Assembly (NCBI GenBank): GCA_011526165.1
Contig: WYAY01000183.1
Coordinates: forward strand, 1 to 35,084
Origin: Sulfuritalea sp.
GTDB taxonomy: Bacteria; Pseudomonadota; Gammaproteobacteria; Burkholderiales; Rhodocyclaceae
Direction of reading: 5' to 3'
DNA length: 35,084 bases
This document shows positions 3,348 to 26,157 of this stretch, piece after piece. Below the pieces are notes generated by a model. It was not told the DNA's origin. It ran no database searches and was given only the letters and a program-made list of their open reading frames with translations. The translations under genes were made by a program, and so were the position numbers. Numbering within the stretch: position 1 is the first letter of the stretch; the number at the start of each line of letters is the position of its first letter.

Positions 3348-3358
3348 GTCATCCCCCC

Positions 3359-5095: not shown

Positions 5096-5156
5096 GAGTT
5101 CCCCTATCCAGTTCCAGTTGCGACCGGTCCGCCAGAAACGCGCTTGGCGCCAGCCT

Positions 5157-5185: not shown

Positions 5186-5207
5186 GTCTCGCGGCCTGCG
5201 AATCGCT

Positions 5208-5230
5208 GCTGCGGCGCATCCTGCCGCAGC
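5208..5230. repeat. Perfect 8-bp inverted repeat between the TylF-like gene and tpsB
   Basis: GCTGCGGC (5208-5215) and GCCGCAGC (5223-5230) form an 8-bp stem with a 7-base loop. It lies 15 bases after the stop of the upstream minus-strand methyltransferase gene. No T-tract follows, so it could be a Rho-type 3' end structure or an operator rather than a classical terminator. Confidence 0.5.
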
Positions 5231-5245
5231 CTGGCGCGGCGCCGC

Positions 5246-6286: not shown

Positions 6287-6389
6287 GCCAGCGGAAGCGG
6301 GGGCAGGGGGGTCGGACAATCCGGGGAGGGCATTATCCGTGATTTGCGTCTGGCTGTAACCCCCCCGCGCGAAAGCGCGCCCGGCCGGC

Positions 6390-7454: not shown

Positions 7455-7475
7455 CCGCCGACGGCAAACCGGCTG

Positions 7476-8255: not shown

Positions 8256-8285
8256 GCCCGTTGCTGCCGCCCCGCGGCCCTCGTT

Positions 8286-9653: not shown

Positions 9654-10470
9654 CGGCGAACCCCTTCCGCGTCTTCTGGAACCAGGCATAGCCGGCCCAG
9701 GCCACCGCCGCCGCCACGGCGGCATAGACGCCCAGCCCGGCCCAGTCCGGCGCCCGCCCCCAGATCAGCACCTCGCGCGCCTGCTCGATGATGAAGGTGA
9801 GCGGATTGGCCAGCAGCCAGGGGCGTACCGCCTCCGGCAGCGCCGTGATTGGATAGAACACCGGCGCCAGGAACAGCAGCACCGTCGTGACGAAGCCGAT
9901 GGTCTGACCGACGTCGCGCAGGAACACGCCGAGGGAGGCCAGCAGCCACGCCAGTCCCAGCACCAGCACCGCCAGCGGCAGCAGCACCAGCGGCGCATAG
10001 ACGGCCGTCCACGGCACGTGGCCGTTGGCCAGCGCGAGCCCGGCCAGCAGCACGGCCAGGCTGGCGACGGTGTGGAACAGCGCCGCGCCGAGGCTCGCCA
10101 GCGGCAGGACCTCCAGCGGGAACACCACCTTCTTGACGAAGTTCGCGTTGCCGAGGATCAAGCCGGGCGCGCGGTTCACCACCTCGGCGAACAGGCCATG
10201 CACGATCATCCCCACGAACAGCACCAGGGCGAACTGCACCCGGCTCTCCTCGCTGCCGCCCCAGCGCGCCCGGAAGGCGATCGAAAACACGAAGGTATAC
10301 ACGGCCAGCATGAGGATCGGATGCAGGAACGACCAGGCCAGGCCGAACAGCGAGCCGCGGTAGCGGCCGGCCACCTCCCGCCACGCCATCTGGCCGATCA
10401 GGCCGCGATGGCGCCACAGCCCTTCGCACAGGGCCAGAGGGGAAACGGAATGGGCGCGATACGGATTCAT
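9643..10470 (-). CDS. wzm: Polysaccharide ABC transporter permease (Wzm-like, ABC-2 type)
   Basis: This is the membrane subunit that pairs with the ATPase encoded immediately downstream to move a lipid-linked polysaccharide or teichoic-acid-like glycan across the inner membrane. The 275-residue product has about six hydrophobic segments. The N-terminal amphipathic region WREVAGRYRGSLFGLAWSF and the central GNANFVKKVVFPLEVLPL are typical of Wzm/KpsM/TagG permeases. The ATG at 10470 is the only reasonable start, with no strong ribosome-binding site. It lies 48 bases after gspE, an unusual upstream neighbour. Confidence 0.93.
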   Translation of the reverse strand: MNPYRAHSVSPLALCEGLWRHRGLIGQMAWREVAGRYRGSLFGLAWSFLHPILMLAVYTFVFSIAFRARWGGSEESRVQFALVLFVGMIVHGLFAEVVNRAPGLILGNANFVKKVVFPLEVLPLASLGAALFHTVASLAVLLAGLALANGHVPWTAVYAPLVLLPLAVLVLGLAWLLASLGVFLRDVGQTIGFVTTVLLFLAPVFYPITALPEAVRPWLLANPLTFIIEQAREVLIWGRAPDWAGLGVYAAVAAAVAWAGYAWFQKTRKGFADVL

Positions 10471-10518: not shown

Positions 10519-12249
10519 TCAGGCGGCATCGAGCACAGGCGGGGCGGCCTCGGCGAATCCGGTGATGGCGAACACCTCCTCCAGGCTGGTGATGCCGCGT
10601 GCCGCCTTGATCAGGCCGTCCTCGCGCAGCGAGCGGTAGCCCGGCCCGGCCGCATCGAGCAGGTCGCGCCACGACGGCGAAGCATGGGTCAGCGCCGCGC
10701 GCAGCGCCTCGTTGGCGCTCAGCAGCTCATAAATGGCGATGCGTCCGCGGTAGCCGGTCTGGCTGCAGCGCGCGCAGCCCTTCGGCTCGCGGAAGCGCGC
10801 CGCCTCCGGCGCGATGCCCAGCCGCGGCAGGATGCGCCTGGCCTCTTCCGGCACCAGCTCGGCATTCGCCAGCGGCGCCGCGCAGGCCTCGCACAGGCGC
10901 CGCACCAGGCGCTGCGCCACCACGCCGCGCACCGTCGCGCCCACCAGGAACGGCTCCACGCCCATGTCGGCCAGGCGCAGGAAGGCCGTCGCGCAATCGT
11001 TGGTGTGCAGGGTCGAGAACACGCGGTGGCCGGTGAGCGAGGCCTGCACCGCGATGCGCGCCGTCTCCACGTCGCGGATCTCGCCGATCATGATGGTGTC
11101 CGGATCGTGGCGCAGGATCGAGCGCAGCGCCGCCGGAAAGGTGAAGCCGATGTCCGGATGCACCTGGAACTGCGTCACCCCCGGCACCTGGTACTCGACC
11201 GGGTCCTCCACCGTCAGCACGCGCTCGTGGGCGATGTCGCAGTCCGCCAGCGTGGCATACAGGGTGGTGCTCTTGCCCGAGCCGGTCGGCCCCGTCACCA
11301 GCACGATGCCGTCGGGCTGGCTCATCCAGTTGCGGTACAGCGCCAGGTGGTCCGCCTCGATGCCGAGCGACTCCAGCGAGAAGCGCATGCCCTGCATGTT
11401 CGGCAGCAGCCGCAGCACCAGCGACTCGCCCTGCACGCCGGGGATCACCGAGACGCGCACGTCGGTGTCCACGCCGGCGGCGCGGCTCGAGAAGCGCCCG
11501 TCCTGCGGCAGGCGCCGCTCCGAGATGTCCAGCCCGGAAATCAGCTTGATGCGGCTCACCACCGCATCGAAGCGGTCGCGCGGGTACTGCTCCTTGCCGT
11601 GCAGCAGGCCGTCGATGCGATAGCGCACGACGAAACCGACCTCGTCCGGCTCGAAATGGATGTCCGAGGCGCGCATGTCGGTGGCGCGCGCCAGCACGCC
11701 GTTCACCAGCTCCACCACCGGCGCGTCCTCGGCCAGCTTGCGCAGGTCCTCGCTGCGGCCGCCCAGCCCCTGCGGGCGGTAGATCTGGTGCAGCATGCGC
11801 TCGAAATCGCGCGCCGCCACCAGCGCCAGGCGATAGCCGCCGTCCGGGCAGAGCACGGTGTCGAGATACTCGATCAGCGACGAATCCAGCACATCGCGCG
11901 TCGCCACCAGCAGCGTCTCGCCGCCCTCCGGCCGGCAGGCGAAAAAGGCCAGGCGGCTGGCCTGCGCCTGCGGGATGCCCGCCTGCTGATGGAACAGCAC
12001 CACCTCCGTCGCCAGGCCGGCCAGCGCCGCATCGCCCAGCAGCTCGACGCCGAGCTGCCAGGCCAGCGCGTCGAGCAGCGTCTGTTCGGAGATCAGGCCG
12101 AGCCGCAGCAGGATGGCGCCGAGCCGCTCGCCGTCGCTTTGCCGCTGGCGCGCCAGGGCCTCCTGCAGGGCGGGCTCGTCGAGGGAGCCGCGCTCCACCA
12201 GCAGCTGGCCGAGCAGCGGACGGGGGGCTTCGGATAAGGTCATCGGCAT
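10519..12249 (-). CDS. gspE: Type II secretion ATPase GspE, separated from the main gsp operon
   Basis: This is the cytoplasmic motor ATPase of type II secretion. The 576-residue product has an N-terminal N1E-like domain (about 1-150). It then has Walker A GPTGSGKST (320-328), the Asp box EDPVEYQ (348-354), Walker B IMIGEIRD (386-393) and the His-box stretch TGHRVFSTLHTND. A zinc site CxxC...CxxC (Cys 453, 456, 492, 495) is characteristic of GspE/PilB. It could in principle be PilB, but the gsp operon at 23139-32142 lacks its own ATPase and no pilus genes are nearby, so GspE is preferred. Two in-frame ATGs (12249, 12243) are possible, and neither has a clear ribosome-binding site. Its setting between methyltransferase and wzm genes is odd. 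Confidence 0.88.
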   Translation of the reverse strand: MPMTLSEAPRPLLGQLLVERGSLDEPALQEALARQRQSDGERLGAILLRLGLISEQTLLDALAWQLGVELLGDAALAGLATEVVLFHQQAGIPQAQASRLAFFACRPEGGETLLVATRDVLDSSLIEYLDTVLCPDGGYRLALVAARDFERMLHQIYRPQGLGGRSEDLRKLAEDAPVVELVNGVLARATDMRASDIHFEPDEVGFVVRYRIDGLLHGKEQYPRDRFDAVVSRIKLISGLDISERRLPQDGRFSSRAAGVDTDVRVSVIPGVQGESLVLRLLPNMQGMRFSLESLGIEADHLALYRNWMSQPDGIVLVTGPTGSGKSTTLYATLADCDIAHERVLTVEDPVEYQVPGVTQFQVHPDIGFTFPAALRSILRHDPDTIMIGEIRDVETARIAVQASLTGHRVFSTLHTNDCATAFLRLADMGVEPFLVGATVRGVVAQRLVRRLCEACAAPLANAELVPEEARRILPRLGIAPEAARFREPKGCARCSQTGYRGRIAIYELLSANEALRAALTHASPSWRDLLDAAGPGYRSLREDGLIKAARGITSLEEVFAITGFAEAAPPVLDAA

Positions 12250-12277: not shown

Positions 12278-13516
12278 TTACTCCGGTCCGCCCGGCCTCG
12301 CGTAAGGATGCGCCGCCTGCCCGAAATCGACCAGCCGGCCGTCGTGCTCGATCAGCACCTGCCCGGCGCGGATGCCCTCGCGCGCCATCTCGGCGAGGAT
12401 GTCCGCCGCCCGCCACTGCGTCGGAATGATCAGCACATCGACCGGCGCCGCCTTCAGGGCATCGCGGAAGCGGATCGTCTGGCCGCTGCCCGGCACGCAG
12501 GTGCCCGCCTTGCTCGGATCGGAATCGACCACCAGCGGAAAGCGCCGCGCATCGGCGCCGAAGTGGTGGATGAACGCCGCCCCCTTGCCCGTGCCGCCCC
12601 AGATCGCCACCGACTTGCCGCTCGCCGCCAGCGCGTCGAGCTGCGCGGCGATCCCCCGCTGCGCCTGCGCCGCCGCGGCGGCGAAGGCATTGGCGCGCGC
12701 CGCGCGCCGCAGGCGCGACGCCGGCATGCCCAGCTCGACCAGCGCGTGCAGCACCTCGCCGTCGTAGCCGTGCTCGAGCGCCGCGACGCGGCCGCCGCGC
12801 CGCAGCAGGGTGCGGAACGATTCGCGCGTGAAATGCGAAGCGTGCTCGAAATAGAAATCCGCCAGCCGCCCCGTGGCGAACACCCGGTCGATGCACGGCA
12901 CCTCGGCGAACAGCAGGCAGGGCTTGCCGAGCGCCGCCGCCCCCCACGCCAGCCCCTCGATCAGCTCCGCCGGCCCGGTCAGGTGCTCCAGCACGTGGCG
13001 GATGATCACCGCGTCCGGTGCGAAGGCCGCCATGTCGGCGAGCGGCTCGAACAGGCGGGCGTGGAACTCGATGCCGCGGCCGTTCTCCGGCGTCGCGCTC
13101 GGGTCGAAGCCGGCGTAGCGCCCGCCGCCGCCCGCCTCGGCCAGGCCGCGCAGGAAATGTCCCTCGCCGCAGCCGATCTCCACCACCGTCGGCCGCGCCG
13201 GCAGCCGCGCCAGCAGCGCGTCGCGCGTCGCCGCCAGGTGGCCGCGCCAGATGCCGCCGGTGTTGAACATCCGGTTCGGCTTGTCGCCGTAGGGGATCGC
13301 CGCATAACTGAAGCGCCGGTTCCAGACATGGCTGCAGGCCGGGCACTGCACGAAGTCGAGCGGGTGGCGCGGCATCGCCCGCGCCGCCTCGGCCGTTTCC
13401 GGCCAGGCGATCGTCGCCAGCGGCTGTTCGCCGCCGTCGAAGAAGGGCGCGGCGTGCGTGGCATGGCAGACCGGGCAGGTCGCCGGAACGAGGGTGGGGG
13501 CAAGCGGTTTTTTCAT
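12278..13516 (-). CDS. SAM-dependent C-methyltransferase-like protein with N-terminal zinc motif
   Basis: The architecture matches the three-part NDP-sugar C-methyltransferase family (TylCIII/TcaB9-like). A zinc-binding region has CPVC (14-17) and CPAC (58-61). The SAM-binding core has EIGCGEG (113-119) and FEHASHF. A C-terminal domain contains AIWGGTGKGAAF near 304-315 and a VVDSDPSKAG strand. The length of 412 residues is normal for the family. It starts at an ATG with AAAGG upstream, 13 bases after the OGT-like gene, and is followed 28 bases later by gspE. It may make a branched deoxysugar or methylate another sugar carbon. Without the partner deoxysugar genes in the window the substrate remains open. 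Confidence 0.82.
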   Translation of the reverse strand: MKKPLAPTLVPATCPVCHATHAAPFFDGGEQPLATIAWPETAEAARAMPRHPLDFVQCPACSHVWNRRFSYAAIPYGDKPNRMFNTGGIWRGHLAATRDALLARLPARPTVVEIGCGEGHFLRGLAEAGGGGRYAGFDPSATPENGRGIEFHARLFEPLADMAAFAPDAVIIRHVLEHLTGPAELIEGLAWGAAALGKPCLLFAEVPCIDRVFATGRLADFYFEHASHFTRESFRTLLRRGGRVAALEHGYDGEVLHALVELGMPASRLRRAARANAFAAAAAQAQRGIAAQLDALAASGKSVAIWGGTGKGAAFIHHFGADARRFPLVVDSDPSKAGTCVPGSGQTIRFRDALKAAPVDVLIIPTQWRAADILAEMAREGIRAGQVLIEHDGRLVDFGQAAHPYARPGGPE

Positions 13517-13529
13517 GATTGAAAGGCCT

Positions 13530-15473
13530 TTAGAAATTCAATGCGGACGGCGGCGCCTCGCACGGAAGCGACGCGCTGCGCCAGCCTCGCGGCAGCCTGC
13601 CGCCCTGCGCGGCGGCGGCGACGGCGGCCAGCAGGAAAGCCTCGAACTCGCGCACGGCCGGCGCGTCGCGGAACAGGGCGCGGCCCGCCGCCTCGCGCAG
13701 GCGACGGCGCAGCCCCTCGCGCAGCCCGGCGTCCCGGCCCAGCCGCAGGGCCTGTGCCACGTAATCCGCGGCGCTCGCGGCGATCGGCGCGTCCTCGATG
13801 CCCATCTGGCGGTACGCCGCCGCGACGACCCGGCCCCGGGCGAACCTGCCGGGCCAGGTGACGATCGGCGTGCCGGCCAGCATGGCCTCGTACATGGAGT
13901 TGCCGCTGCCGAAGTGCAGCGGATCGAGCAGCACGTCGGCGCAGCGCAGCAGCGCCAGGAAATCCTCCCGCCCCATGCGCGGCAGGAAAACGGTGCGCGC
14001 GTTGATCGCCTCGAATGACCTGCTCCAGCGCCGCCGCAGCAGCGCCTCCTGGCCGGGATGCCTGCCGCCGATGATAACCAGCACGCCGCCCGCATCGGCC
14101 GCCAGGATGTCCGCCAGCACCGCGTCGAAATCGGGATGGAACTTGAACAAGGTCTGCGGACAGGCATAGACCGTCGCCGCCTCCGCCAGCCCGAAACGGG
14201 CGCGCGACGCGCCCCCCTGCGGCAGATCGACCGGCTCGTAATGGCAGGGCAGCCGGCCCAGGCGGACCAGCCGCTCCGAATACAGATCGTCGGCGTCCGG
14301 CCCTTCGATGCCCTCGCAGGACAGGAAATAGTCGAGCGTGTCCACCCCGGTCGTGTCCGGATGGCCCCACGAAGTCAGCTGCACCGGCGCCAGCCGCGCG
14401 AACGACAGGAAATAGGCCGGCGGACAATCCCCGATGTCGGTATAGAACAGCACGTCGAGCGCCTCCGCCGCGACCGCTTCCTGCATCCTCGGCACGTCGG
14501 CCGGCAGGCTCAGCGTGCGGTCCGCCATGGCGTCGATGCGGGCGCGGCCGGCGTCCCGCTTCGCCTGGGCGGTGTGGATCACGACGACTTCGAAGCGCGA
14601 CCGGTCCAGCCGCGCGATCAGACCCTCGTACAGCTGGCCGATCGAATGCTCCCGGAAGAATTCCGACAGGAAGCCGACGCGAACCCGCCTGCCCTGCGCC
14701 GGTGGCGCGGTCCGGCCGCGCAGGTGCGGCGCCGTGAAGGTGAGCGACGGCACCCTGGCGCGGAACATCCCGGCCAGCCGCTCCAGCAGCGGACGGTTGT
14801 CCGCGTTGTGGTAGGCCAGGTAGAACGACGTCAGCGCGCCGTAGGGCGGGCGGCGCGACGCCGAAGCGGCGGACAGCCCGGCCAGATTGTCCGCATAGCG
14901 CCGCCGCCAGCGGACGGTCTGCTCCGCGCTCTCGGCCAGCATCGGCAGCAGGAAGGCGTGCGCCACCGCGTACTCGAAATTGTCCGGCGCGCGTTCCGCC
15001 GCCGCTCCGAAGGCCTCCGCCGCGGCATCGTTCTCGCCGACATTCCACAAGGCGATGCCCAGGTTGTAATACGCCATCGCGGAAGCCGGCTTCAGTTCCA
15101 GGCCCTGCCGGTAATGCCCGATCGCCGCATCGAAGCGGCCCAGCTCGGCCAGCGCATTGGCCAGGTTGACGTGGGCCTCGGCGCAGGCCGGGTCCAGCGC
15201 CAGGGCGCGCCGATAGCAGGCCAGCGCCTCCTGCAGCCTGCCGCTGCGCCGCAGGAAGATGCCCAGGTTGTTGTGCCCGTCCGCCTGCCCGGGCGCCGCC
15301 TCGACCGCCTTGCGGAACAGCGCCTCCGCCTCGTCCAGCCGCCCCTCGATGAACAGGGCGTGGGCGCGCTGGGCGAAGGTCTGCGGGGCGGCAACCTTGT
15401 CGTCGCTGGGCATGGTCTGGCTGGTTTTCAAGGTGGAGCGCCCAGGGGAAGCGAGGCGATTCGACCCCGGCAT
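13530..15473 (-). CDS. TPR-containing OGT-like protein glycosyltransferase (paralogue B)
   Basis: This is a probable cytoplasmic glycosyltransferase of the SPINDLY/O-GlcNAc transferase group (GT41-like). TPR units occupy about residues 36-165. The GT-B catalytic part begins near RVGFLSE (265-271) and includes LYEG, a WGHP stretch, [14 protein letters not shown] and [10 protein letters not shown]. The last motifs take the place of the nucleotide-binding loop seen as GGTTSLEAL in the classical enzyme at 18655. It is clearly paralogous to the gene at 16577, which shares these motifs. The start at 15473 is preceded by AAAGGG 12 bases away. An internal ATG at 15413 would remove 20 low-complexity residues and is equally possible. 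The acceptor protein is unknown. Nearby exported proteins are candidates. Confidence 0.85.
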   Translation of the reverse strand: MPGSNRLASPGRSTLKTSQTMPSDDKVAAPQTFAQRAHALFIEGRLDEAEALFRKAVEAAPGQADGHNNLGIFLRRSGRLQEALACYRRALALDPACAEAHVNLANALAELGRFDAAIGHYRQGLELKPASAMAYYNLGIALWNVGENDAAAEAFGAAAERAPDNFEYAVAHAFLLPMLAESAEQTVRWRRRYADNLAGLSAASASRRPPYGALTSFYLAYHNADNRPLLERLAGMFRARVPSLTFTAPHLRGRTAPPAQGRRVRVGFLSEFFREHSIGQLYEGLIARLDRSRFEVVVIHTAQAKRDAGRARIDAMADRTLSLPADVPRMQEAVAAEALDVLFYTDIGDCPPAYFLSFARLAPVQLTSWGHPDTTGVDTLDYFLSCEGIEGPDADDLYSERLVRLGRLPCHYEPVDLPQGGASRARFGLAEAATVYACPQTLFKFHPDFDAVLADILAADAGGVLVIIGGRHPGQEALLRRRWSRSFEAINARTVFLPRMGREDFLALLRCADVLLDPLHFGSGNSMYEAMLAGTPIVTWPGRFARGRVVAAAYRQMGIEDAPIAASAADYVAQALRLGRDAGLREGLRRRLREAAGRALFRDAPAVREFEAFLLAAVAAAAQGGRLPRGWRSASLPCEAPPSALNF

Positions 15474-15492
15474 GATCGTTGAAGGCCCTTTG

Positions 15493-15520
15493 CAAAAGTC
15501 AGTCGCTGCGGCACGGCGGC
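15493..15520 (+). repeat. Short dispersed intergenic motif, copy 2
   Basis: On the plus strand this reads CAAAAGTCAGTC, then GCTGCGGCACGGCGGC. It differs from the copy at 32907-32934 at three of 28 positions. One of the changes, C to T in the left arm of a 5-bp inverted repeat, keeps pairing through a G-T wobble. The copy sits 20 bases upstream of the OGT-like gene start at 15473. Confidence 0.5.
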
Positions 15521-15547
15521 ACGCTCACTGGACGACCATCCCCCCAT

Positions 15548-15568
15548 CCCCCTTCCCGAGGAAGGGGG
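15548..15568. repeat. Perfect 9-bp palindrome in the gap between UDP-xylose synthase and OGT-like genes
   Basis: CCCCCTTCC (15548-15556) and GGAAGGGGG (15560-15568) form a 9-bp stem with a 3-base loop, flanked by more C- and G-runs. The look is that of a repetitive extragenic palindrome. No T-tract follows on either strand. Confidence 0.6.
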
Positions 15569-15610
15569 TGAGAGGGGGTCGCAGGCTGCGCCCGCTCCGT
15601 GTTGTTGGCT

Positions 15611-15641
15611 GCGCCCCCTTGGGACGGCCCGGCGGGGGCGC
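15611..15641 (-). terminator. Hairpin directly after the UDP-xylose synthase stop codon
   Basis: GCGCCCCC and GGGGGCGC (15611-15618 and 15634-15641) form a perfect 8-bp stem around a 15-base loop, starting at the base after the stop codon. There is no T-tract, so transcription may continue. It may instead protect the 3' end or belong to the same extragenic repeat as the palindrome at 15548. Confidence 0.4.
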
Positions 15642-16576
<935 letters not shown>

Positions 16577-16580
<4 letters not shown>

Positions 16581-18658
16581 GTCGTCGCTTTCGTGTTCTC
16601 GTCCGGCGGCATCCAGCCGCTCGGCAGTTTATCGCCCCGGCGCGCCGCCGCCACGGCCGCCTCGAAAAATTTTTCCAGCTCGCGCACCGCGCCGAGGTCG
16701 CCGAACAGGGCCGGGGCGCGTTCCCGCAGCTCCGCGCGCAGGGCGGCGCGCCTTGCCGCATCCCGGCCCAGCACCAGCGCCAGCGGCGCATAGCCGTCCA
16801 GCGTCGCCGCCACCGGCGCGTCCGCCACGCCCATCTGCCGGTAGGCGGCGGCGACGATGCGGCCGCGCGCGAAACGCCCCGGCCAGGTCACGATCGGCGT
16901 GCCGTAGACCATCGCCTCGTAGAGCGTGTTGCCGCTGCCGAAATGCGGCGGATCGAGCAGCACGTCGATGTGCGCCATGAGCGCCATGAAGCCGTCGAGC
17001 GGCAGCCGCGGCAGGAACAGCACGCGCTCGTTGAGGATCGGCGCCGACTTCGCCCAGCGCGCGCGCAGCCGCGCCGACGGCTCGGGCTGCGCGCCCTCCA
17101 GCAGCACGATGCGCCCGTCGGGATCGCCCGCGGCGATGGCCGCCAGCACGGCATCGAAGTCCGGGTGGAACTTGAACAGCGACTGCGGGCAGCCGTACAG
17201 CGTCGCCCCCTCCGGCAAACCCATCGAACGGCGGTCCGGAATGCGCGTCGGCGCCAGCAGCGGCACGTAATGGCAGGGCAGGCGCCGCAGGCGGATCAGG
17301 CGCTCGCTGTAGTGCGCCTCGGCGCCCGGCGGCTCGATGGCGTCGGCCGAGACGAAATAGTCCAGCGTGTCGATGCCGCTGGTGATCGGATGCCCCCAGC
17401 CCACCGCCTGCACCGGCGCCAGGCGCGCGTGCGCCAGCAGCCACGACGTCGGCGTCATGCCGATGTCGGTGTAGAACAGCACGTCCAGCCCCTCCGCCGC
17501 GACCGCCGCCTGCATGCCCGGCAGGTCGTCCGGCAGCGTCAGCGCGCGGTCCGCCGCCGCGCTCAGCGGCTGGCGGCTCCACCAGGGCGCCCAGCGCATG
17601 GCGTGGATGGCCACCACCTCGAAGCGCGCCCGGTCGAGCCGGCGCAGGAAACCCTCGTACAGCTTGGACAGCGTGTGGCCGGCGACGAAGCATTCCGAGA
17701 GGAAGCCGACGCGGATGCGCCCGTCCGCCGCCCGCCCGGCGGCATCGCCCGCGGCGACGCAATTCAGCGCCGGCACGCGCCGCCGCACCAGGCGGCTCAG
17801 CCTTTCCAGCAGCGCGCGGTCGTCCTCGTTGTGGTAGGCCAGGTAGAAGATGTTCGGGATGTTGTCGGGCGGCGGCGCCGCCGCCAAGGCCGCCTCCGCC
17901 TCCAGCCGCGCCAGCCCCGTCTCGAAGCGGCGGCGCCACGCGCGCATCTCGTCGCGGTCGACCGGCGTCGTCGGCAGCGCCAGCGCATGCGCCAGCTCGA
18001 ACTCGACATTGCCGGGCTGCAGGCGGCTGGCCTCGCCGAGGGCGGCCAGCGCGTCCGCCTCCCGCCCCATCAGGGACAGCACCTTGCCGCGGTTGTAATG
18101 CACCTCGGCCGACGCCGGGGCCAGCGCCAGGGCGCCCTCGAGGCGGGCCAGCGCCTCGTCGTAGCGATGGGCGTCGCGCAGCGCCAGGCCATGGGCGACC
18201 AGCGCATTGACATCCTGCGGCAGCCGCCGCACCGCCTCCCCCCAGGCCGCCAGCGCGTCCCGCCCCTGCGCCCGCAGCGCCAGCGCCAGCGTCTTCCACG
18301 CCGCCGCAAACTCCGCGTCGGCCTCCAGCAGCGCGCGCGCGCCGGATTCCGCCTGCGCGAACTGCTTCGCCTCGAGCAGCAACTGCAGGGCATGGGCGGC
18401 GGTGCGGCGGTATTCCGGCCGCCCCGGCATGCCGGCGAGGGCGCGCGCCAGATGCGGCAGCGCCGCCGCCGCCTGGCCGCGCTGCAGCGCCAGCGCGCCG
18501 AGGTTGTGGCTGGCCGCGACGAGGCCGGGCTGCGCCCGCAGCAGGTCGCGGTAGAGGCTTTCCGCCTCGTCGAGGCGGCCGGCCTGGTGCAGGCCGACGG
18601 CGCGCTGCAGGAGCGCCTCCGCCTGCGCCGCCGCCTTGCCGCTTTTCTTCGCGCTCAT
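16577..18658 (-). CDS. TPR-containing OGT-like protein glycosyltransferase (paralogue A)
   Basis: The 693-residue product is a probable cytoplasmic GT41-like glycosyltransferase. TPR-type helices cover about residues 10-225. The catalytic region has RVGFLSE (316-322), [10 protein letters not shown] (419-428), FKFHPDFD (495-502), HFGSGN (572-577) and [10 protein letters not shown] (591-600). It shares these, and the FYLAYHN and [10 protein letters not shown] stretches, with the gene at 13530, so the two come from a duplication. The ATG at 18658 overlaps the stop of the preceding OGT-like gene (ATGA) and its own stop overlaps the UDP-xylose synthase ATG. The open frame continues to 21001, but that part only shadows the upstream gene. 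Donor and acceptor are unknown. Confidence 0.87.
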
Positions 18659-20994
18659 TGCCGCGCGCACCAATCCCGCCACATGCCGCGCCAGGCCGCG
18701 GCGAGGTGGCCGGCGAAGCGCGGCGCGTCGCACAAGGGCGAAGCCAGCAGTTGCGGCCGCAGCGCGGCGCGCAGCGCCGCCAGCGCCGGCAGGTCGCCGG
18801 CCAGGGCGACGGCGCGGCGCAGGTAATCCTCGTCGTCCCGCGCCACCCACTCCGCCAGCCCGGCCGTGTTGAGGATGCTCTCGCCGACATGGCCGACGAA
18901 GCGCGGACTGCGCCGCGTCAGCACCGGCACGCCCATCCACAGCGCCTCCAGGCTGGTGGTGCCGCCCGGATAGGGAAACGGATCGAGCGCGATGTCCACC
19001 CGACGGTAGGCCGCCAGCAGCTCGGCGCGCGGCAGGCGGCCCTCCAGCAGCAGCCGCTCGGCGGCGATGCCGTGCGCGGCGAAGCGCGCGCGCACGCGCG
19101 CGCGCAGCGCCTCGTCGTCGAGCTGCGGCGTCTTCAGGAACAGGCGCGCCTGCGGCAGCGCCTGCAGCAGGCGCCCCCACAGCGCCACCACCTCGTCGTT
19201 CAGCTTGGCCAGGTTGTTGAAGCTGCCGAAGGTCAGCCGCCCCTCGGCCAGCGCCGGCAGCGGCCCCGCCTCGAGCGCAAAGGGCGGCGGCGTGAAGCAC
19301 AGATAGCTGTCGGGCAGGCGCCAGGGCCGCTCGACGAAATGGCCTTCCTCCTCCGCCGGCAGCACCCAGCGGTCGCCGATCACGTAATCCATCTGCGCCA
19401 GGCCGGTCGTCGCGAAGTAGCCCAGCCAGCTCGCCTGCAGCGGCGCCGGCTTGCGCGCGAACAGCGGCAGGCGATGGCCGCCGGTATGGCCGGACAGGTC
19501 GACCAGCAGGTCGATCCCGTCGGCGCGGATGCGCGCCTCGGCGGCGGCATCGTCGAGCGCGGCGATCGGGCGCCACAGGTCGAACTGCCGCTTCAGCCGC
19601 TGCGTCGTCTCGTCCTCGACGCGGTTGTGCGAATAGGCGAACAGCTCCAGCTCCGCCCGCGGCAGCGCCGCCAGCGTGCTCTCGAGGAAGAAGCTCACCG
19701 GATGCCCGCGGAAATCGGCCGACACCAGGCCGACGCGCAGGCGCTTCTCCGGCTGCGCCCGGCCGCGCCAGTCCGGCGCCGCACGCTGCGCCAGCCGCGC
19801 CAGCCGCGCGCCGTAGGCGCGCGACTCCTGCAGCAGGTCGATCGCGGAGTCCTCCGTCAGGTAGCCGTTGGCGATCATCAGCAGGTTGCCGTGCGCCTCG
19901 TGGAAATCCGGCTTCAGCACCAGCGCCTGCCGGTAGCACGCCACCGCCGCCGCCGGGTCGCCGGACAGATACAGGGCGTTGCCCAGGTCGCAATGGGCCG
20001 CCGGCTCGTCCGGGCGCGTCGCCAGGGCGCGCCGGTAGCAGTCCTCCGCCTCGCCGCACCAGCCCAGGTCGAGCAGGGCGCGGCCGAGGTTCTTCAGGGC
20101 GTCGAAATAATCCGGCCGCAGCGCCACCGCGCGGCGGAAGCATGCCACGGCGGCTTCCGGCTGCGCCGCCTCGTACAGCATGACGCCGACGTTGATGTGG
20201 CCGTCGGCGAAATCCGGCTGCGCCGCGACCGAGGCGCGGAAGCTGGCCAGCGCCGCCTCGGCGTGGCCGAGCTCCTTGAGGACGATGCCGAGGTTGAGAT
20301 GGGCCTCGGCGAAGGCCGGGCGCAGCGCGATGGCGCGGCGCAGGCCGTCCTCCGCCTCGGCCCAGCGGCCCTCGCGCATGCGCTCGCGCGCCAGGGCGAA
20401 GTGCGCCTCGGCATCCTGCGGCAGCAGCGCCGCCGCCCTTTCCGCCTCCGCGCCCGCCTCGCGCCCCTGCGACAGCCGCGCCGCCGCCAGCGCCTTCCAG
20501 GCGAAGCCGCTGGCCGGATAGGCGGCGACCAGCTGGCGCGCCAGGATCTCCGCCTCGTGATGGCGGCCGGCGGCGTAGGCCGCCAGCAGCGCCTGCGCCG
20601 CCTCGGCCGGCGGCTCGCGCCGCAGCACGGCGTTCTGCTCCGCCCGCCCCACCCGCTCGCGCAGCGCGGCGGCGGCCGGCAGGTCGCGCACCGGCGCGGC
20701 CTGCAGGGCCAGCAGGGCGGCCTGCGATTCGCCGCATTGCAGCAGGGCCTCGGCCAGGGTCAGCCGGTATTCGCCGCGTTCCGGCTGGGCGGCGACCGCC
20801 GCCTCGAGCAGGCGGCGCCCCTGCACCGCCTCGCCGCCCTGCAGGGCGACGGCGCCGAGGTTGTGCAGCGCCGCCGGATGGCCCGGCTGCGCCGCCAGGA
20901 TCTCCTGGTAGATGCGCGCGGCCTCGTTCAGGTGGCCGGCGCGCTGCAACGCGACGGCCTGGGCCAGGGCGGCGTCCAGATTCAGTTCGACCAT
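18655..20994 (-). CDS. TPR O-GlcNAc transferase-like protein (SPINDLY/OGT family)
   Basis: The 779-residue product is a classical bacterial OGT-like protein. A long TPR superhelix covers about residues 5-375. A GT41 catalytic region follows, with LVSADFRGHPVSFFLE (423-438, His431 at the place of the human OGT active-site His), DLSGHTGGHR (499-508), LGYFATTG, FGSFNNLAKLND (589-600, Lys597 at the UDP-contacting Lys) and DPFPYPGGTTSLEALWMG (671-688). It should glycosylate Ser/Thr residues of proteins in the cytoplasm with a UDP-sugar, by family analogy. The ATG at 20994 has no obvious ribosome-binding site. It lies only 18 bases after the T-tract of a strong terminator, which leaves no room for a promoter of its own. 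Confidence 0.9.
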   Translation of the reverse strand: MVELNLDAALAQAVALQRAGHLNEAARIYQEILAAQPGHPAALHNLGAVALQGGEAVQGRRLLEAAVAAQPERGEYRLTLAEALLQCGESQAALLALQAAPVRDLPAAAALRERVGRAEQNAVLRREPPAEAAQALLAAYAAGRHHEAEILARQLVAAYPASGFAWKALAAARLSQGREAGAEAERAAALLPQDAEAHFALARERMREGRWAEAEDGLRRAIALRPAFAEAHLNLGIVLKELGHAEAALASFRASVAAQPDFADGHINVGVMLYEAAQPEAAVACFRRAVALRPDYFDALKNLGRALLDLGWCGEAEDCYRRALATRPDEPAAHCDLGNALYLSGDPAAAVACYRQALVLKPDFHEAHGNLLMIANGYLTEDSAIDLLQESRAYGARLARLAQRAAPDWRGRAQPEKRLRVGLVSADFRGHPVSFFLESTLAALPRAELELFAYSHNRVEDETTQRLKRQFDLWRPIAALDDAAAEARIRADGIDLLVDLSGHTGGHRLPLFARKPAPLQASWLGYFATTGLAQMDYVIGDRWVLPAEEEGHFVERPWRLPDSYLCFTPPPFALEAGPLPALAEGRLTFGSFNNLAKLNDEVVALWGRLLQALPQARLFLKTPQLDDEALRARVRARFAAHGIAAERLLLEGRLPRAELLAAYRRVDIALDPFPYPGGTTSLEALWMGVPVLTRRSPRFVGHVGESILNTAGLAEWVARDDEDYLRRAVALAGDLPALAALRAALRPQLLASPLCDAPRFAGHLAAAWRGMWRDWCARQ

Positions 20995-21012
20995 GGGGCA
21001 AATCCGATCGTT

Positions 21013-21046
21013 AAAAAAAAAAACCGGGGGGCTTGCGCCCCCCGGT
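21013..21046 (-). terminator. Strong intrinsic terminator of the surface-protein gene
   Basis: ACCGGGGGGC (21023-21032) and GCCCCCCGGT (21037-21046) form a perfect 10-bp stem with a 4-base loop. On the minus strand a run of ten T follows at 21022-21013. It lies about 40 bases after the stop codon of the gene at 21085-22872 and just ahead of the OGT-like gene start. Confidence 0.92.
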
Positions 21047-21084
21047 GTTGCTGCAGGTGATGCTAACAGCCAGTGCGCAGCCGA

Positions 21085-22872
21085 TTACCGGCCGTTGATG
21101 CCCAGGAAGGCATCCTGCGACTGGTACTGGCCTTCGTTGACCGGCGCGCGGTCGGTGTTGCCCTCGAAGTCAACCGCTTGCGTGCTGGAAGCTTCGATGA
21201 AGTTCTGGCTCGCCGGGTTGTAGAGGTAGTTCTGCACGCGCAGCGTCGAACCCGCGTTCGAGGTGATGCGCAGGCGCGAACCGCCGCGGGCCAGGTCCTG
21301 CGACACGGCCGGGCCGTTCAGGCCGACCGCGGTGGCGGGCGCGTTGACCAGCAGCGCATCGACAGCCGCCGAGGTCAGGTTCAGCACGGCCAGCGGCGCG
21401 AGGTCGGTCAGCTTGCCCCAGGCGCCGTAGGTGCCGTCGGCATGGATCATCTGGCCCCAGACGTCGATGGTGCGCACTTCGCTGTTGTTGATCAGGCGAA
21501 TCACGCTCATCCAGCCGGTGTTGGCGGTCTGCTGGCTGTTGGCGTAGTTGCGCACGTCGATCTTGACGCCGCCGCCGAGCGAGTAGAGGTTGCCGTTACA
21601 GATGTTGTTCTGCTCGTTCAGGTTGACACCGGCATTCGCCTTGTCCACCAGCGCCACGGCCGAGAAGGCCGACAGCGGGATCGGGGTGCCGATGCCGGCG
21701 ACGCCGTAGCAGACGTGCACCGGGCCGGTACCCGTCGCGCCGAAGGCGCCGTTGACCTGGGCGGTGCCGATCGACAGGGTGATCGGGCCGGCCGCGTTCC
21801 CGGCGACGATAGCCGTGGCCGCACCGCCGCCGCTGACGACGGCGGTGGCGCAACCAACGCCGGTGTCGAGCCACAGCGTGCCGCCCACCACGAAGCCGTT
21901 GGTGGCGCTCACGGTGACATCGACCTTCTCGACTTCGACGTAGCCGTTATTCACGGCGGCCACACCGACGTTGCTCAGGCCGGGGACGGCGTTGAGCAGG
22001 TACTGGTTGGTCAGGTTGCTGTCGTAGCCGGTGGCGTTCTGCACCAGGGTGACCGTGCCGAGGTTGGCGATCGTCGTCGAGACGAAGGACGTGCCCGCCG
22101 TGCCGGTGAATTGCAGGTTGGCGGCGCTGACGTTGACCTTGGCGTTGCCGGTCGAGGTGGCGATGGCCGGACGGACGTTGGTCGGGAAGTTGATGATACC
22201 GGCGCGGTTGGTGGCGCCGCCGCGGGTATGTTCGTCGCCGATGCCGTTGGTGGTTTCCACCGCGATGGCGGCCGGGTTGGCCAGCAGCTTGAAGTGGCGG
22301 AAATTGACGAACAGGTTCTTGTTGTCCGTGCAGACGCCGCGCGTGTTGTAGTCGTTGACGATGTCGCCGACCACGGTGTAGAGGTTGTTGATCGTCGCAC
22401 CGGTGGTGGCGCCGGCGGCGTTCAGGGTGATGATCGGCTGGTCGAGCAGCGAGTCGGTCCACGCGCCGGCCGGGGCGACCGGCACGGTGAACGTCGCCCA
22501 CAGCGTGGTGCCGTCGGCCGAGATGCCCTGGCTGGTGATCGTGAAGTCGGTGCCGCCGACGCCCGGGACACCGGCGTCGGTGCCGGCGGTCGGGGTGATC
22601 GTGAAGGCGTCCGCGCTCGGCAGGCCGACCCAGAGGGCGCCGCCTTCGAGGATGAACTGCACCTGGAACTCCTGCGCCTGCACGGTGGCGTCGATGTCGC
22701 CGGCGAAGCGGTAGGAGATGACCGGGGAAACGATCGTCTGCGTGTTGGTCGTGATGACCTCGCGCGCGACGTTGGTGGAAGAGGCGGTGATCTGCCCGGC
22801 TTGCACGGTGCCGACTGCGGCAGCTCCAGCAAACGCCCCCAGGATCAGGCGGGTAAGAAGTTTTTGTTTCAT
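21085..22872 (-). CDS. Exported surface/S-layer-like protein of unknown family
   Basis: I do not recognise the family. The 595-residue product has a clear Sec signal peptide (basic MKQKLLTR, hydrophobic core, likely cleavage after VQA at residue 25). The mature part is long, rich in Thr, Ala, Asn, Gly and Val, poor in Lys, and has only four visible Cys. The composition and beta-rich look resemble surface-layer or other secreted structural proteins. The ATG at 22872 has AAAGGGAA eight bases upstream; the open frame extends to 22980 but without such a site. It has its own candidate promoter and a very strong terminator, which suggests high expression as a single-gene unit. It lies between the gsp operon and three protein glycosyltransferase genes, so it may be a type II secretion substrate and a glycoprotein. 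Both ideas are inference. Confidence 0.8.
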   Translation of the reverse strand: MKQKLLTRLILGAFAGAAAVGTVQAGQITASSTNVAREVITTNTQTIVSPVISYRFAGDIDATVQAQEFQVQFILEGGALWVGLPSADAFTITPTAGTDAGVPGVGGTDFTITSQGISADGTTLWATFTVPVAPAGAWTDSLLDQPIITLNAAGATTGATINNLYTVVGDIVNDYNTRGVCTDNKNLFVNFRHFKLLANPAAIAVETTNGIGDEHTRGGATNRAGIINFPTNVRPAIATSTGNAKVNVSAANLQFTGTAGTSFVSTTIANLGTVTLVQNATGYDSNLTNQYLLNAVPGLSNVGVAAVNNGYVEVEKVDVTVSATNGFVVGGTLWLDTGVGCATAVVSGGGAATAIVAGNAAGPITLSIGTAQVNGAFGATGTGPVHVCYGVAGIGTPIPLSAFSAVALVDKANAGVNLNEQNNICNGNLYSLGGGVKIDVRNYANSQQTANTGWMSVIRLINNSEVRTIDVWGQMIHADGTYGAWGKLTDLAPLAVLNLTSAAVDALLVNAPATAVGLNGPAVSQDLARGGSRLRITSNAGSTLRVQNYLYNPASQNFIEASSTQAVDFEGNTDRAPVNEGQYQSQDAFLGINGR

Positions 22873-23138: not shown

Positions 23139-25688
23139 TCATCGTGCCGGTGGGCGCGGGTTGCCGCCTCGCACCGCCTCTAGCAACTCTTGTTTTAGCT
23201 TCTCGTCCGTGACTGCCTTGCCCTGGGGTTCGGGTGCGCTGGTTGCGCCCGGCGCCGCTGCAGCAGGCGGTTTGGCTTTTTCTTGCGCGGAATCTACCCC
23301 ATTGGACGGCGTTTTGGGAAGGGCTGCGGCACCGGACGGCACGGCTGCGGCAGGGGAGTGTTGCGCCGGCGCAACACTTTGCTGTTTGGGGTCCTTTTCC
23401 GGCAGCACATAGGGCTGGGAAACCACTGGGCGGGAAGGCTGCGGCGGCACTGCGGCTTGCGGCGCGGCGGGCGGCGGGCCGCCCGCCGGCGGCGCCGGCG
23501 GCGACTGCGGCGACTGCGGCGACACGGGCAACTCGGGCGACGACACAGGCGATGCGGCTTCCGGCGCCGGCGTGCCCCTGTCGAGCGGCGCCGGCAGCGC
23601 GCGCGCCCACTGGAACTGGTTGCGGAAAGTGTCGGTGATGGCGCGCGCGTCGAAGTCGTCCTCGATGACGAAGGGCGTCAGCAGCACCACCAGCTCGGTG
23701 CGCTCGCTGTTGTCGCTCATGCCGGTGCTGAAGATCGGGCCGACCAGCGGAATGTCCTTGAGGAACGGGATGCCGGAGTTGCCCTTGGTGCGCTGCTCCT
23801 GCATGAGGCCGCCGAGCAGCACGGTGCCGCCGTCGCTCACCGAGAGCTTGGTGTCGACCTTGCGCGTGAGGATGATCGGCGAGGAGTTGACGCCGGTCTC
23901 GTTGGCCTGGGCGGCGCTCACCTCCTGGATGACGTCGAGGTCGATGCGGCCGCCGGCGTGGATCACCGGCTTCACCTTGAGGATGACGCCGGTGTTGCGG
24001 TACTGGATGGTCTGCAGGATGCCGGAGCTGCCGACGATGGTGCCGGTGTTGGCGTTGGAAATCTGGCTGGTGAGGATGGGCACCTCCTGGCCGACCTGGA
24101 TGATCGCCTGCTCGCCGTTGCGCGCCATGACGCTGGGATTGGAGAGGATGCGGATCTTGTTGGTGCTGGCGAGCGCCGTGAGCAGGCCGCGCGGGTCGCC
24201 GAGGATGCTCGCCACGGCGATGCGGAAGCTGCCGGCGGCGGCGGACGGCGGGGTGCCGGGCGCGAAGGTGCCCATGTTCACGCGGTAGCCGTTGCGCATG
24301 AACTCGCTGACGATCCACTGGAAGCCGAGCTGCTCGGTGTCGGTGAGGCGCACCTCGGCGACGGTGGCCATCACCAGCGCGCTGCGCGCCGGGCGGTCGA
24401 GCTCCTGCAGCAGGCCGTGCCACTGCTGGTATTCGGCGCGCGAGGCCTGGATGATGAGGGCATTGCGGGCGGCGCTCACCACCACCTTGCCGCCGCCGCG
24501 CGTGACGCCGCCGCCCCCGCTGCCGGCGCCGCCGGCAGCGCCTGCCGCGCCGGCGGCGGGGGCCGCCGGCGCGGCGCCCATCACCTCGGAGAGCGTCTTG
24601 GCAAGGTCGGCGGCGTCGGTGTTGCGCACGTAGTAGGTGATGAAGTTGCCGGCCATGCCGCGCGTATGCGTCGGCTGGTCGAGCTCGCGCACCCAGCGCA
24701 GGGCGTGGTTGAGCGTCTGCTCGTTGGAAGCGAAGACGATGACGGAGTTCACCGGCGGCACGGCAAGCACGAGCAGCGGGGTGCTGGCGCCGGGCTGCTG
24801 GGCGACGGCGTAGCCTTCCGCCTGCAGGATCTCGGTCAGGCGCTTGCCCATCTCGTCGGCCGACCAGTACACGGGCACGATGCGCGCCGAGACGCGGCCG
24901 CGCATGGCCGGCTGGTCGAGGATCTGGATCACCTCGAGCGCGGCGTTCACCGTGTCGTTCTGCCCGCCGAGCAGGATGGCGTTGCGCGGGACATCTTCCT
25001 GGGCGGTGAGGCGCCCGCCGGGGAACAGCGTGCGCAGCCAGTTGACGGTCTGGGCGGCGTTGGTGTGCTCGAGCTCGGCGAGGTAGAACACCGGCCGCAG
25101 CGCGGCGGGCACCTCGGGCAGGGCGCGGCCGCGGCGGATCTCGGGCAGGTAGCCGCTCTCGGCCTTGTCCGGCACGAAGCGCACCATCCCGGAGAATTCG
25201 TTGATGGCGACGCCGTAGGAGCGCAGCACGCCGCGCGCCGCCTCGAACAGCTGTTCCTCGGTCTGCGGCTTGCCGGTGCGCAGGCTGACCATGTCGTTGC
25301 GCGTCTGCACCTGCGGGTCGATGGAGACGTTGCGCTTGAGGATGTGCACGAACACCGTCTCGATGAACTGCGGCAGGGGCTGGTTCTGCAGGTCGATCGT
25401 GGCGTTCACCGGCACGCCCTCGGCCGGCGCGGCGGCCGGCGCGCGGCGCGCGTCGGTGCGCGCCGCGTCCGGCGGCTGCGGCGTGCGGTAGAAGGCGGGC
25501 GCGGTCGGCGCGGCGGCGGCGGCGGTTTCGGCGGGCTTCTGCTCGCGCGCCGGCTTGGCGATCGGCTGGGGGATCAGCGGCTTGTCGGGCAGCAGACCGC
25601 AGCCGGCGGCGAGCAGCGGCAGCGCGAGGGCCAGCGCCCGCCACGGCGCGGCGGCAAAAATGAAGTCGAGATTTCTCATGTCGCGCAT
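23139..25688 (-). CDS. gspD: Type II secretion secretin GspD, lipoprotein type with long Pro/Ala-rich tail
   Basis: This is the outer-membrane channel of type II secretion. The 849-residue product starts with a lipoprotein signal (LAAGC, lipidated Cys30), so it may reach the outer membrane without a separate pilotin. N0-N3 type domains fill about 95-435, interrupted near 372-402 by an Ala/Gly-rich insertion. The secretin domain (about 440-676) contains RILSNPSVMARNGEQA, VGQEVPILTS and the signature around VPLVGPIF-like IPLVGPIFSTG. It ends in a Pro/Ala/Gln-rich tail of about 145 residues. I chose the ATG at 25688, right after the upstream stop (TAGAATG), with GGAAT just before it. ATGs at 25700 and 25679 are alternatives. 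It is the last gene of the gsp operon. Confidence 0.92.
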   Translation of the reverse strand: MRDMRNLDFIFAAAPWRALALALPLLAAGCGLLPDKPLIPQPIAKPAREQKPAETAAAAAPTAPAFYRTPQPPDAARTDARRAPAAAPAEGVPVNATIDLQNQPLPQFIETVFVHILKRNVSIDPQVQTRNDMVSLRTGKPQTEEQLFEAARGVLRSYGVAINEFSGMVRFVPDKAESGYLPEIRRGRALPEVPAALRPVFYLAELEHTNAAQTVNWLRTLFPGGRLTAQEDVPRNAILLGGQNDTVNAALEVIQILDQPAMRGRVSARIVPVYWSADEMGKRLTEILQAEGYAVAQQPGASTPLLVLAVPPVNSVIVFASNEQTLNHALRWVRELDQPTHTRGMAGNFITYYVRNTDAADLAKTLSEVMGAAPAAPAAGAAGAAGGAGSGGGGVTRGGGKVVVSAARNALIIQASRAEYQQWHGLLQELDRPARSALVMATVAEVRLTDTEQLGFQWIVSEFMRNGYRVNMGTFAPGTPPSAAAGSFRIAVASILGDPRGLLTALASTNKIRILSNPSVMARNGEQAIIQVGQEVPILTSQISNANTGTIVGSSGILQTIQYRNTGVILKVKPVIHAGGRIDLDVIQEVSAAQANETGVNSSPIILTRKVDTKLSVSDGGTVLLGGLMQEQRTKGNSGIPFLKDIPLVGPIFSTGMSDNSERTELVVLLTPFVIEDDFDARAITDTFRNQFQWARALPAPLDRGTPAPEAASPVSSPELPVSPQSPQSPPAPPAGGPPPAAPQAAVPPQPSRPVVSQPYVLPEKDPKQQSVAPAQHSPAAAVPSGAAALPKTPSNGVDSAQEKAKPPAAAAPGATSAPEPQGKAVTDEKLKQELLEAVRGGNPRPPAR

Positions 25689-25689
25689 T

Positions 25690-26157
25690 CTATTCCACAT
25701 ACGTCCTGATTTCCCGCTGGTTGCCTTCGGCGTCGCTGACGACGACGATGTCGCGCCTGACCTTGAGCAGCTTGCCGCCGTCGGGCAGGGCTTCGCCCTC
25801 CTTGACCGGCTGCGGCTTGTCCTTGCCGACCTGGATGACGGCCAGATATTCGCCGTTGCGCTCGACGGCGGCGAGCAGGCGCCACTCTATCTGCTTCGCC
25901 AATTCCTCGGCCTTCTTCGGCGGCGGCAGCGGCTTGCCGTCGCGCTGCACGCCCCACATCGCGGTCTTCTCCAGCCGCTCGCGCGCGGCTGCAAGGTCGG
26001 CCGGCGCGAAGCGGATGTCCGCGCGCGGCAGCGATGCCGGGCGGCGGGCGCCGACCAGCGCCGCCGGCGGCTCGAGGCCGATCCAGACCAGCGTTGCGGC
26101 GGCGAGCCAGGTCAGCCCGACCAGCAAGGCCATGCGCAGCAGCCAGAGCCGGCTCAC
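25690..26157 (-). CDS. gspC: GspC-like inner-membrane protein (HR domain)
   Basis: The 155-residue product has one N-terminal transmembrane segment (about 7-27). A periplasmic domain with the pattern WRLLAAVERNGEYLAVI, then EGEALPDGGKLLKVRRDIVVV resembles the HR domain of GspC or the PilP fold that docks on the secretin. It is much shorter than classical GspC (about 270-300 residues) and lacks a PDZ or coiled-coil end. The start is GTG at 26157, overlapping the upstream stop (GTGA), with a good GGAGG ribosome-binding site seven bases away. Direct adjacency to gspD supports the role. Confidence 0.75.
   Translation of the reverse strand: MSRLWLLRMALLVGLTWLAAATLVWIGLEPPAALVGARRPASLPRADIRFAPADLAAARERLEKTAMWGVQRDGKPLPPPKKAEELAKQIEWRLLAAVERNGEYLAVIQVGKDKPQPVKEGEALPDGGKLLKVRRDIVVVSDAEGNQREIRTYVE

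What the first reader, a model, noticed from the sequence alone, without database searches (positions are those of the whole stretch)
13530..22872. Candidate surface-protein glycosylation system: exported protein followed by three OGT-like enzymes and a UDP-xylose synthase
An exported protein of unknown family (21085-22872) is followed by one classical and two divergent TPR glycosyltransferases, with UDP-glucuronate decarboxylase overlapping the second one by an ATGA. OGT/HMW1C-type enzymes act on proteins in the cytoplasm and are sometimes encoded beside their exported clients. The surface protein is rich in Thr, Ser and Asn. I infer a dedicated glycosylation unit, possibly using UDP-xylose rather than UDP-GlcNAc.
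Basis: partly seen in the sequence, partly recalled or inferred. Interest (0 to 1): 0.75.

Follow-up and report, generated by a model that had tools for sequence, protein, structure and literature searches.

The report
S-layer-type secretion locus with OGT module
A bacterium of the Rhodocyclaceae carries what looks like a dedicated export machine for a coat-like surface protein, into which a set of sugar-attaching enzymes resembling the human O-GlcNAc transferase has been inserted; whether those enzymes decorate the coat protein is plausible but untested.

Summary
In detail: on the minus strand an exported protein (SURF, 21085-22872) is followed by a SPINDLY/OGT-like enzyme, a divergent TPR-GT41 enzyme, a UDP-glucuronate decarboxylase (UXS) overlapping it by ATGA, and a second divergent TPR-GT41 enzyme. 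SURF homologues have gsp genes nearby in 27 of 30 loci, and a terminator-like hairpin follows in 16 of 16 testable loci. This matches published NpdA S-layer loci, although no named NpdA sequence could be compared. GT41 genes lie near SURF in only 3 of 30 loci, all in the window's own family. All three have an OGT1 orthologue and UXS; one of the other two (G136) also has the OGT2/3 orthologue and the C-methyltransferase, at another position. So the module is an accessory that stays with the locus. SURF is not richer in Ser/Thr/Asn than homologues without GT41 neighbours. Best reading: S-layer-type secretion with an accessory, probably protein-modifying, GT41 module. Acceptor and xylose donor are inferred.

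The parts
21085..22872 (-). SURF: exported S-layer-type protein, 595 aa, 25-residue signal peptide read by eye; NpdA-like by context
   Evidence: no Pfam/NCBIfam/PDB family; model mostly beta but low confidence (pLDDT 57.7)
21013..21046 (-). terminator-like hairpin after SURF (10-pair stem, T-run)
   Evidence: a hairpin plus T-run after SURF in 16 of 16 testable loci, no shuffled control
18655..20994 (-). OGT1: TPR + GT41, SPINDLY/OGT type
   Evidence: PDB best SPINDLY 7y4i 397 bits; clade with G003 and G136 enzymes
16577..18658 (-). OGT2: divergent TPR + GT41
   Evidence: model TPR superhelix + GT-B-like part, best folds SPY/OGT
15642..16580 (-). UXS: UDP-glucuronate decarboxylase (UDP-xylose synthase) by sequence
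   Evidence: human UXS1 436 bits, next other enzyme 136 bits; 78% identical copy in G136, 98% over first 45 aa in G003
13530..15473 (-). OGT3: divergent TPR + GT41, sister of OGT2
12278..13516 (-). C-methyltransferase of the NDP-sugar type (Methyltransf_23 and _14 above cut-off, _13 below)
   Evidence: 70% identical copy beside UXS in G136
10519..12249 (-). gspE-type ATPase with MshE-like c-di-GMP motif
23139..25700 (-). gspD secretin
   Evidence: GspD model 331 bits, cut-off 351
30940..32142 (-). gspF
   Evidence: 256 bits, cut-off 424
30446..30943 (-). gspG major pseudopilin
   Evidence: T2SSG 111 bits
27898..30439 (-). gspH, I, J, K minor pseudopilins
   Evidence: N_methyl; T2SSJ below cut-off; T2SSK; gspI by position only
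25690..27709 (-). gspL-, gspM-, gspC-like genes
   Evidence: T2SSC weak (23 bits, cut-off 27); L and M by position only
9643..10470 (-). Wzm, ABC-2 polysaccharide export permease
8286..9653 (-). Wzt, ATPase with Wzt_C domain
   Evidence: Wzt_C 113 bits
5246..8255 (-). glycan-modifying genes: CmcI-type O-methyltransferase, acyltransferase, TylF-type methyltransferase
32951..34618 (-). TPR-sulfotransferase upstream of the gsp genes

Best explanation
This is a dedicated type II secretion locus for an S-layer-type surface protein of the kind described as NpdA. The protein crosses the inner membrane by Sec and the outer membrane by the T2SS, and coats a cell whose polysaccharide is exported by the adjacent Wzm/Wzt. 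In this Rhodocyclaceae lineage a module of two kinds of TPR-GT41 enzyme, UXS and a C-methyltransferase is added. Its most likely job is to attach short sugars to Ser/Thr of the surface protein, or of other exported proteins, in the cytoplasm before export. Shown: gene order, families, conserved linkage, hairpin after SURF. Inferred: that it forms an S-layer, that the module acts on protein, that SURF is the acceptor, that the donor is UDP-xylose or a derivative.
For: SURF homologues have gsp genes nearby in 27 of 30 loci; gspE follows SURF within 108-308 bases in 10 of the 30, and at 141 bases in L034. A terminator-like hairpin follows SURF in 16 of 16 testable loci, as expected for a very abundant protein. 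The same arrangement (12 gsp genes upstream, 25-aa signal peptide, no conserved domain, S-layer shown by deletion and cryo-EM) is published for NpdA (PMC10765051; abstract and sections 5, 23, 24, 32 read). Wzm and Wzt both found in 10 of the 13 SURF loci with at least 10 kb on each side, against 0 of 40 arbitrary 19.9-kb windows and 3 of 46 GT41-centred windows. Module linkage: OGT1 of window, G003 and G136 form a clade (support 0.970); OGT2+OGT3 are sisters (0.919) with the G136 enzyme next (0.997) in a tree of 23 enzymes; UXS and C-methyltransferase beside them in G136 (78% and 70% identity); UXS after OGT1 in G003. OGT2 has a TPR superhelix; its nearest folds are the protein O-glycosyltransferases SPY and OGT.
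Against: No named NpdA sequence was compared. GT41 is absent from the fetched flank of 27 of 30 homologues, among them one (G245) of the four in the window's own family. SURF shows no Ser/Thr/Asn or sequon enrichment over homologues without GT41. The hairpin separates SURF from the module. The module could serve the Wzm/Wzt glycan or the two-partner protein at 1-5185. The SURF model is poor (pLDDT 57.7; no fold match at E up to 0.001).
Confidence: 0.5

Rival explanations
1. The GT41/UXS/C-methyltransferase genes build or decorate the polysaccharide that Wzm/Wzt exports, and SURF is an unglycosylated S-layer protein that merely binds that polysaccharide.
For: Wzm, Wzt and three further glycan-modifying genes follow; no other glycosyltransferase was recognised among the window genes scanned; assembly of the Delftia S-layer protein needed LPS (PMC3110197, passages); in A. 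salmonicida a T2SS/vapA cluster lies between wzm and wzt of the O-antigen locus (PMC4483657, passages); SURF composition is not special.
Against: Wzm/Wzt is found with SURF in 10 loci without GT41 or UXS. The GT41 enzymes of the papers listed (OGT, SPINDLY, HMW1C) act on proteins, and OGT1-3 carry TPRs.
Confidence: 0.3
2. The enzymes glycosylate the two-partner adhesin encoded at the window's start, as HMW1C does for HMW1, or flagellin or other exported proteins, not SURF.
For: FhaC/TpsA pair at 1-5185; OGT2 and OGT3 match the NCBIfam N-glucosyltransferase model at 58 and 62 bits; one class of HMW1C-like genes lies beside tpsA/tpsB (PMC3983070, passages); FlmG, a soluble O-glycosyltransferase, modifies flagellin in the cytoplasm (PMC7591256, passages).
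Against: The TPS pair is separated from OGT3 by seven genes and gave no tblastn hit in the other SURF loci searched. OGT2 resembles OGT/SPY more than NGT. The NGT score is far below its cut-off of 1000. Flagellin genes were not looked for.
Confidence: 0.13
3. The module is a passive cargo: genes of a polysaccharide or island cluster that happen to be inserted between SURF and gspE, an insertion-prone gap.
For: In G837 the same SURF-gspE gap holds 6.8 kb of unrelated genes including toxin-antitoxin-like ones, by eye. OGT2-like matches are common in this order: 171 of 199 genomes at E up to 0.001, some on the TPRs only.
Against: Orthologous OGT1, OGT2/3, UXS and C-methyltransferase recur with SURF in a second genus at another position; 0 of 40 arbitrary windows held a GT41 catalytic domain.
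Confidence: 0.07

Closest known systems
NpdA S-layer protein and its gsp cluster (Delftia, Paracidovorax; PMC10765051, PMC3110197)
   Same: 25-aa signal peptide, no conserved domain, gsp cluster beside it, reported across Betaproteobacteria including Rhodocyclales
   Different: mature SURF 58 kDa against 52.4 kDa in P. citrulli; a GT41/UXS/C-methyltransferase insert between SURF and gspE is not mentioned in the sections read; sequence identity to NpdA untested
Aeromonas salmonicida VapA A-layer locus (PMC4483657, passages)
   Same: T2SS genes, surface protein, Wzm/Wzt and a sulfotransferase gene in one region
   Different: no GT41 or UXS module in the passages read; VapA not compared by sequence
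OGT / SPINDLY (CAZy GT41)
   Same: TPR superhelix plus GT41 domain
   Different: neighbours an exported protein and UXS; OGT2/3 are a divergent subgroup; donor and acceptor unknown
HMW1C-type N-glucosyltransferases
   Same: cytoplasmic GT41-related enzyme encoded near an exported protein
   Different: OGT2/3 have TPRs and fit OGT/SPY better; the nearest exported protein here is a T2SS, not a two-partner, protein
FlmG flagellin glycosyltransferase (PMC7591256, passages)
   Same: modular soluble O-glycosyltransferase acting on an exported protein in the cytoplasm
   Different: different client and sugar; not compared by sequence

Membership tests
NpdA S-layer protein | sequence orthology to a named NpdA | not testable with these tools
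NpdA S-layer protein | gsp gene cluster beside the gene | tested here: met
   window and 27 of 30 loci, window included
NpdA S-layer protein | 25-residue signal peptide, no conserved domain | tested here: met
   signal peptide by eye only; no Pfam or NCBIfam hit
NpdA S-layer protein | forms an S-layer | not testable with these tools
   needs cryo-EM and deletion
GT41 (OGT/SPY type) | Glyco_transf_41 domain above cut-off with N-terminal TPRs | tested here: met
   OGT1 160, OGT2 53, OGT3 63 bits against 25; OGT2 model
GT41 (OGT/SPY type) | transfers a sugar to protein Ser/Thr | not testable with these tools
   needs enzyme assay
HMW1C/NGT N-glucosyltransferase | NCBIfam NF049992 above cut-off | tested here: not met
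   OGT3 62 and OGT2 58 bits against 1000
UDP-glucuronate decarboxylase (UXS) | full-length match to UXS clearly above other SDR enzymes | tested here: met
   436 bits to human UXS1 over 4-310, next other enzyme 136 bits
T2SS | GspD, E, F, G and K recognised | tested here: met
   GspD, E and F score below the NCBIfam equivalog cut-offs, so a divergent T2SS

The most novel reading that the evidence does not exclude
A T2SS-exported S-layer protein is O-glycosylated in the cytoplasm by three OGT/SPINDLY-type enzymes using UDP-xylose or a C-methylated pentose derived from it, before Sec and T2SS export; a further client class for soluble cytoplasmic protein glycosyltransferases beside adhesins and flagellins.
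Probability: 0.15. Interest if true: 0.75.

Novelty: new variant of a known kind. Interest (0 to 1): 0.45.

Why it matters
If the module acts on the surface protein, it would give an S-layer glycosylation route that needs no lipid-linked oligosaccharide or oligosaccharyltransferase. It would also give bacterial OGT homologues, which look common in this order (171 of 199 genomes match OGT2, some on TPRs only), a testable client. Even without glycosylation, the frequent pairing of this surface-protein family with Wzm/Wzt (10 of 13 loci with long flanks) suggests that coat protein and anchoring polysaccharide are inherited together.

Tried and rejected
Composition as evidence of glycosylation: rejected, window SURF lies at the low end for Ser+Thr and mid-range for Ser+Thr+Asn. 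A fold for SURF: model too poor, Foldseek gave nothing at E up to 0.001. PDB sequence search: nothing. Plasmid collection: no match. GT41 near T2SS as a general rule: 4 of 46 GT41-centred windows against 0 of 40 arbitrary windows, suggestive only; UXS near GT41: 2 of 46 against 0 of 40, too few (3 of 49 GT41 windows were left out there as too short). Literature on S-layers with OGT-type enzymes: searches (0 papers; 190 papers, 20 listed; 47 papers, 15 listed; 1; 1) showed no title on that pairing; only listings were seen and the library lacks most subscription journals.

Limits of the counts. Rows dropped before the 30 SURF loci: weak fragments G478 and G250, three partial copies in G782:C43, a second partial hit in G968. 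L039/G627, L034/G891 and L035/G856 are counted once each. G892 is counted on its profile hit although tblastn did not find it. Flanks differ: many loci have 10 kb or less on a side, so a module as far away as in G136 (about 9-17 kb) could be missed there; among six non-module loci with at least 14 kb on both sides (G245, G185, G636, G712, G627, G760) none had GT41. The 40 control windows were placed by me at set coordinates in 14 genomes, only two of them with SURF, and are shorter (19.9 kb) than the long-flank SURF stretches (21-40 kb); its Wzm/Wzt score limits were looser for Wzm and stricter for Wzt than. The 25 tree sequences and the 23 are a choice among many GT41 matches, some trimmed to the matched part. 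The genome searches score only a few candidates per genome, so absences there are weak. My gspC reference was in a wrong frame and is used for no count.
Full report
The window is a whole contig of a draft genome (G000:C163, 2.97 Mb in 255 contigs, 85% complete). A genus-mate, G003, matches the named record JADLGU010000098 'Rhodocyclaceae bacterium'. The genes discussed lie on the minus strand. Their order is: TPR-sulfotransferase; gspF, G, H, I, J, K and L-, M-, C-like genes; gspD; SURF; OGT1; OGT2; UXS; OGT3; C-methyltransferase; gspE; Wzm; Wzt; a CmcI-type methyltransferase; an acyltransferase; a TylF-type methyltransferase; and a two-partner secretion pair that runs off the contig.

The five genes of the finding are confirmed. 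OGT1 is a SPINDLY/OGT-type GT41 (PDB best SPINDLY, 397 bits). OGT2 and OGT3 are divergent TPR-GT41 enzymes about 51% identical to each other over 601 residues. The OGT2 model (three sequences, pLDDT 69.5) has a confident TPR superhelix (about residues 10-220) and a less certain catalytic part; its nearest folds are SPY and OGT. The HMW1C/NGT model matches far below its cut-off. UXS is unmistakable (human UXS1, 436 bits). Junctions are tight (two ATGA overlaps; 13 and 28 bases) except for 168 bases between UXS and OGT3 and 90 bases with a strong terminator-like hairpin between SURF and OGT1.

Identity to SURF runs from 29% to 61%. They are sparse: 5 of 395 genomes of the window's family at E up to 0.01, the window's own included and one of them a short weak fragment; among 15 other genomes of the genus only G003 has it; 12 of 150 and 13 of 299 overlapping samples of another large family. 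The search scores only a few candidates per genome, so these are lower bounds. Of 30 loci, 27 have gsp genes nearby; the exceptions are G762, G782b and G863, the last at a contig end. A hairpin plus T-run follows SURF in 16 of 16 loci with enough downstream sequence; a seventeenth (L071) had too little; no shuffled control was run for this. This is the picture of the NpdA S-layer genes (PMC10765051; abstract and sections 5, 23, 24, 32 read), for which S-layer formation was shown by deletion and cryo-EM in P. citrulli. I could not compare SURF with a named NpdA, so 'NpdA-like' is by context.

Wzm and Wzt were both found in 12 of 30 loci, and in 10 of the 13 with at least 10 kb on each side, against 0 of 40 arbitrary windows and 3 of 46 GT41-centred windows; the SURF stretches are longer (21-40 kb) than the control windows (19.9 kb). 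This fits the LPS-dependent assembly of the Delftia protein (PMC3110197, passages) and the A. salmonicida arrangement, where T2SS genes and vapA lie between wzm and wzt, with a sulfotransferase gene after wzt (PMC4483657, passages).

GT41 genes lie near SURF in 3 of 30 loci: window, G003 and G136, that is three of the four SURF loci in the window's own family and none of 26 elsewhere. In G003 the order is gspD-SURF-OGT1-UXS, then the contig ends. In G136 SURF is followed directly by gspE, Wzm and Wzt, and the module (an OGT2/3 orthologue, OGT1, UXS, C-methyltransferase) lies about 9-17 kb further. A FastTree tree of 23 enzymes puts the three OGT1s together (0.970), and OGT2 with OGT3 (0.919) next to the G136 enzyme (0.997). 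In one search, among 199 genomes searched with OGT2, the only genome besides the window's own with a match below 1e-100 is G136, which also carries SURF. The module therefore stays with the SURF locus across two genera and a rearrangement, but SURF does not need it elsewhere.

Against a simple reading: SURF of the module-bearing genomes is not enriched in Ser, Thr, Asn or N-x-S/T (S+T 16.8-18.3% against 16.7-23.1% in 16 others; sequons 5-9 against 4-13). The hairpin makes SURF probably a separate transcript. The sugar-modifying genes beyond gspE and the neighbouring Wzm/Wzt make polysaccharide synthesis a serious alternative. UDP-glucuronate could be made in this genome (two NDP-sugar dehydrogenases over cut-off), so UDP-xylose supply is possible, not shown.

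Similar company was seen elsewhere with exported-looking proteins unrelated to SURF by blastp: two GT41 genes with gsp genes, such a protein and Wzm/Wzt in G075 and G056, and GT41 near gsp genes in G186 and G151. Of 46 GT41-centred windows 4 had T2SS genes, against 0 of 40 arbitrary ones. That is a lead, not a result.

It is a new variant of the T2SS/S-layer locus with an accessory, lineage-specific GT41/UXS/C-methyltransferase module. Protein glycosylation, with SURF as the first candidate acceptor, is the most likely use of the module, at moderate confidence.

Noticed in passing
window 1-5185: Two-partner secretion pair: FhaC/ShlB (3359-5185) and a TpsA with a TPS domain that runs off the contig; a possible alternative client for the GT41 enzymes.
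   Followed up: partly
window 10519-12249: gspE carries an MshE-type c-di-GMP-binding motif above its cut-off (53.9 against 38 bits), so secretion of the surface protein may be under c-di-GMP control.
   Followed up: no
window 32951-34618: TPR-sulfotransferase upstream of the gsp genes; a sulfotransferase gene also lies in the A. salmonicida A-layer region.
   Followed up: no
L118 (G075), L050 (G056), L049 (G186), L099 (G151): GT41 genes near T2SS genes; in the first three also near a protein that looks exported (by eye) and is unrelated to SURF by blastp; Wzm/Wzt too in G075 and G056.
   Followed up: partly
L116 (G185), L117 (G023): UXS (about 70% identical) next to GT41 genes, without SURF beside them; in G185 the two reading frames overlap.
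   Followed up: no
L137 (G837) 2485-9294: The SURF-gspE gap holds 6.8 kb of unrelated genes, toxin-antitoxin-like by eye: the gap may be an insertion hot spot.
   Followed up: no
G782:C43 59930-62878: Three partial SURF-like copies (about 250 residues of the N-terminal part) close together, besides two full-length copies elsewhere in that genome.
   Followed up: no
L117 1-7908: A 2636-aa open frame whose first 150 residues are short degenerate repeats, on the same stretch as GT41 genes in G023.
   Followed up: no
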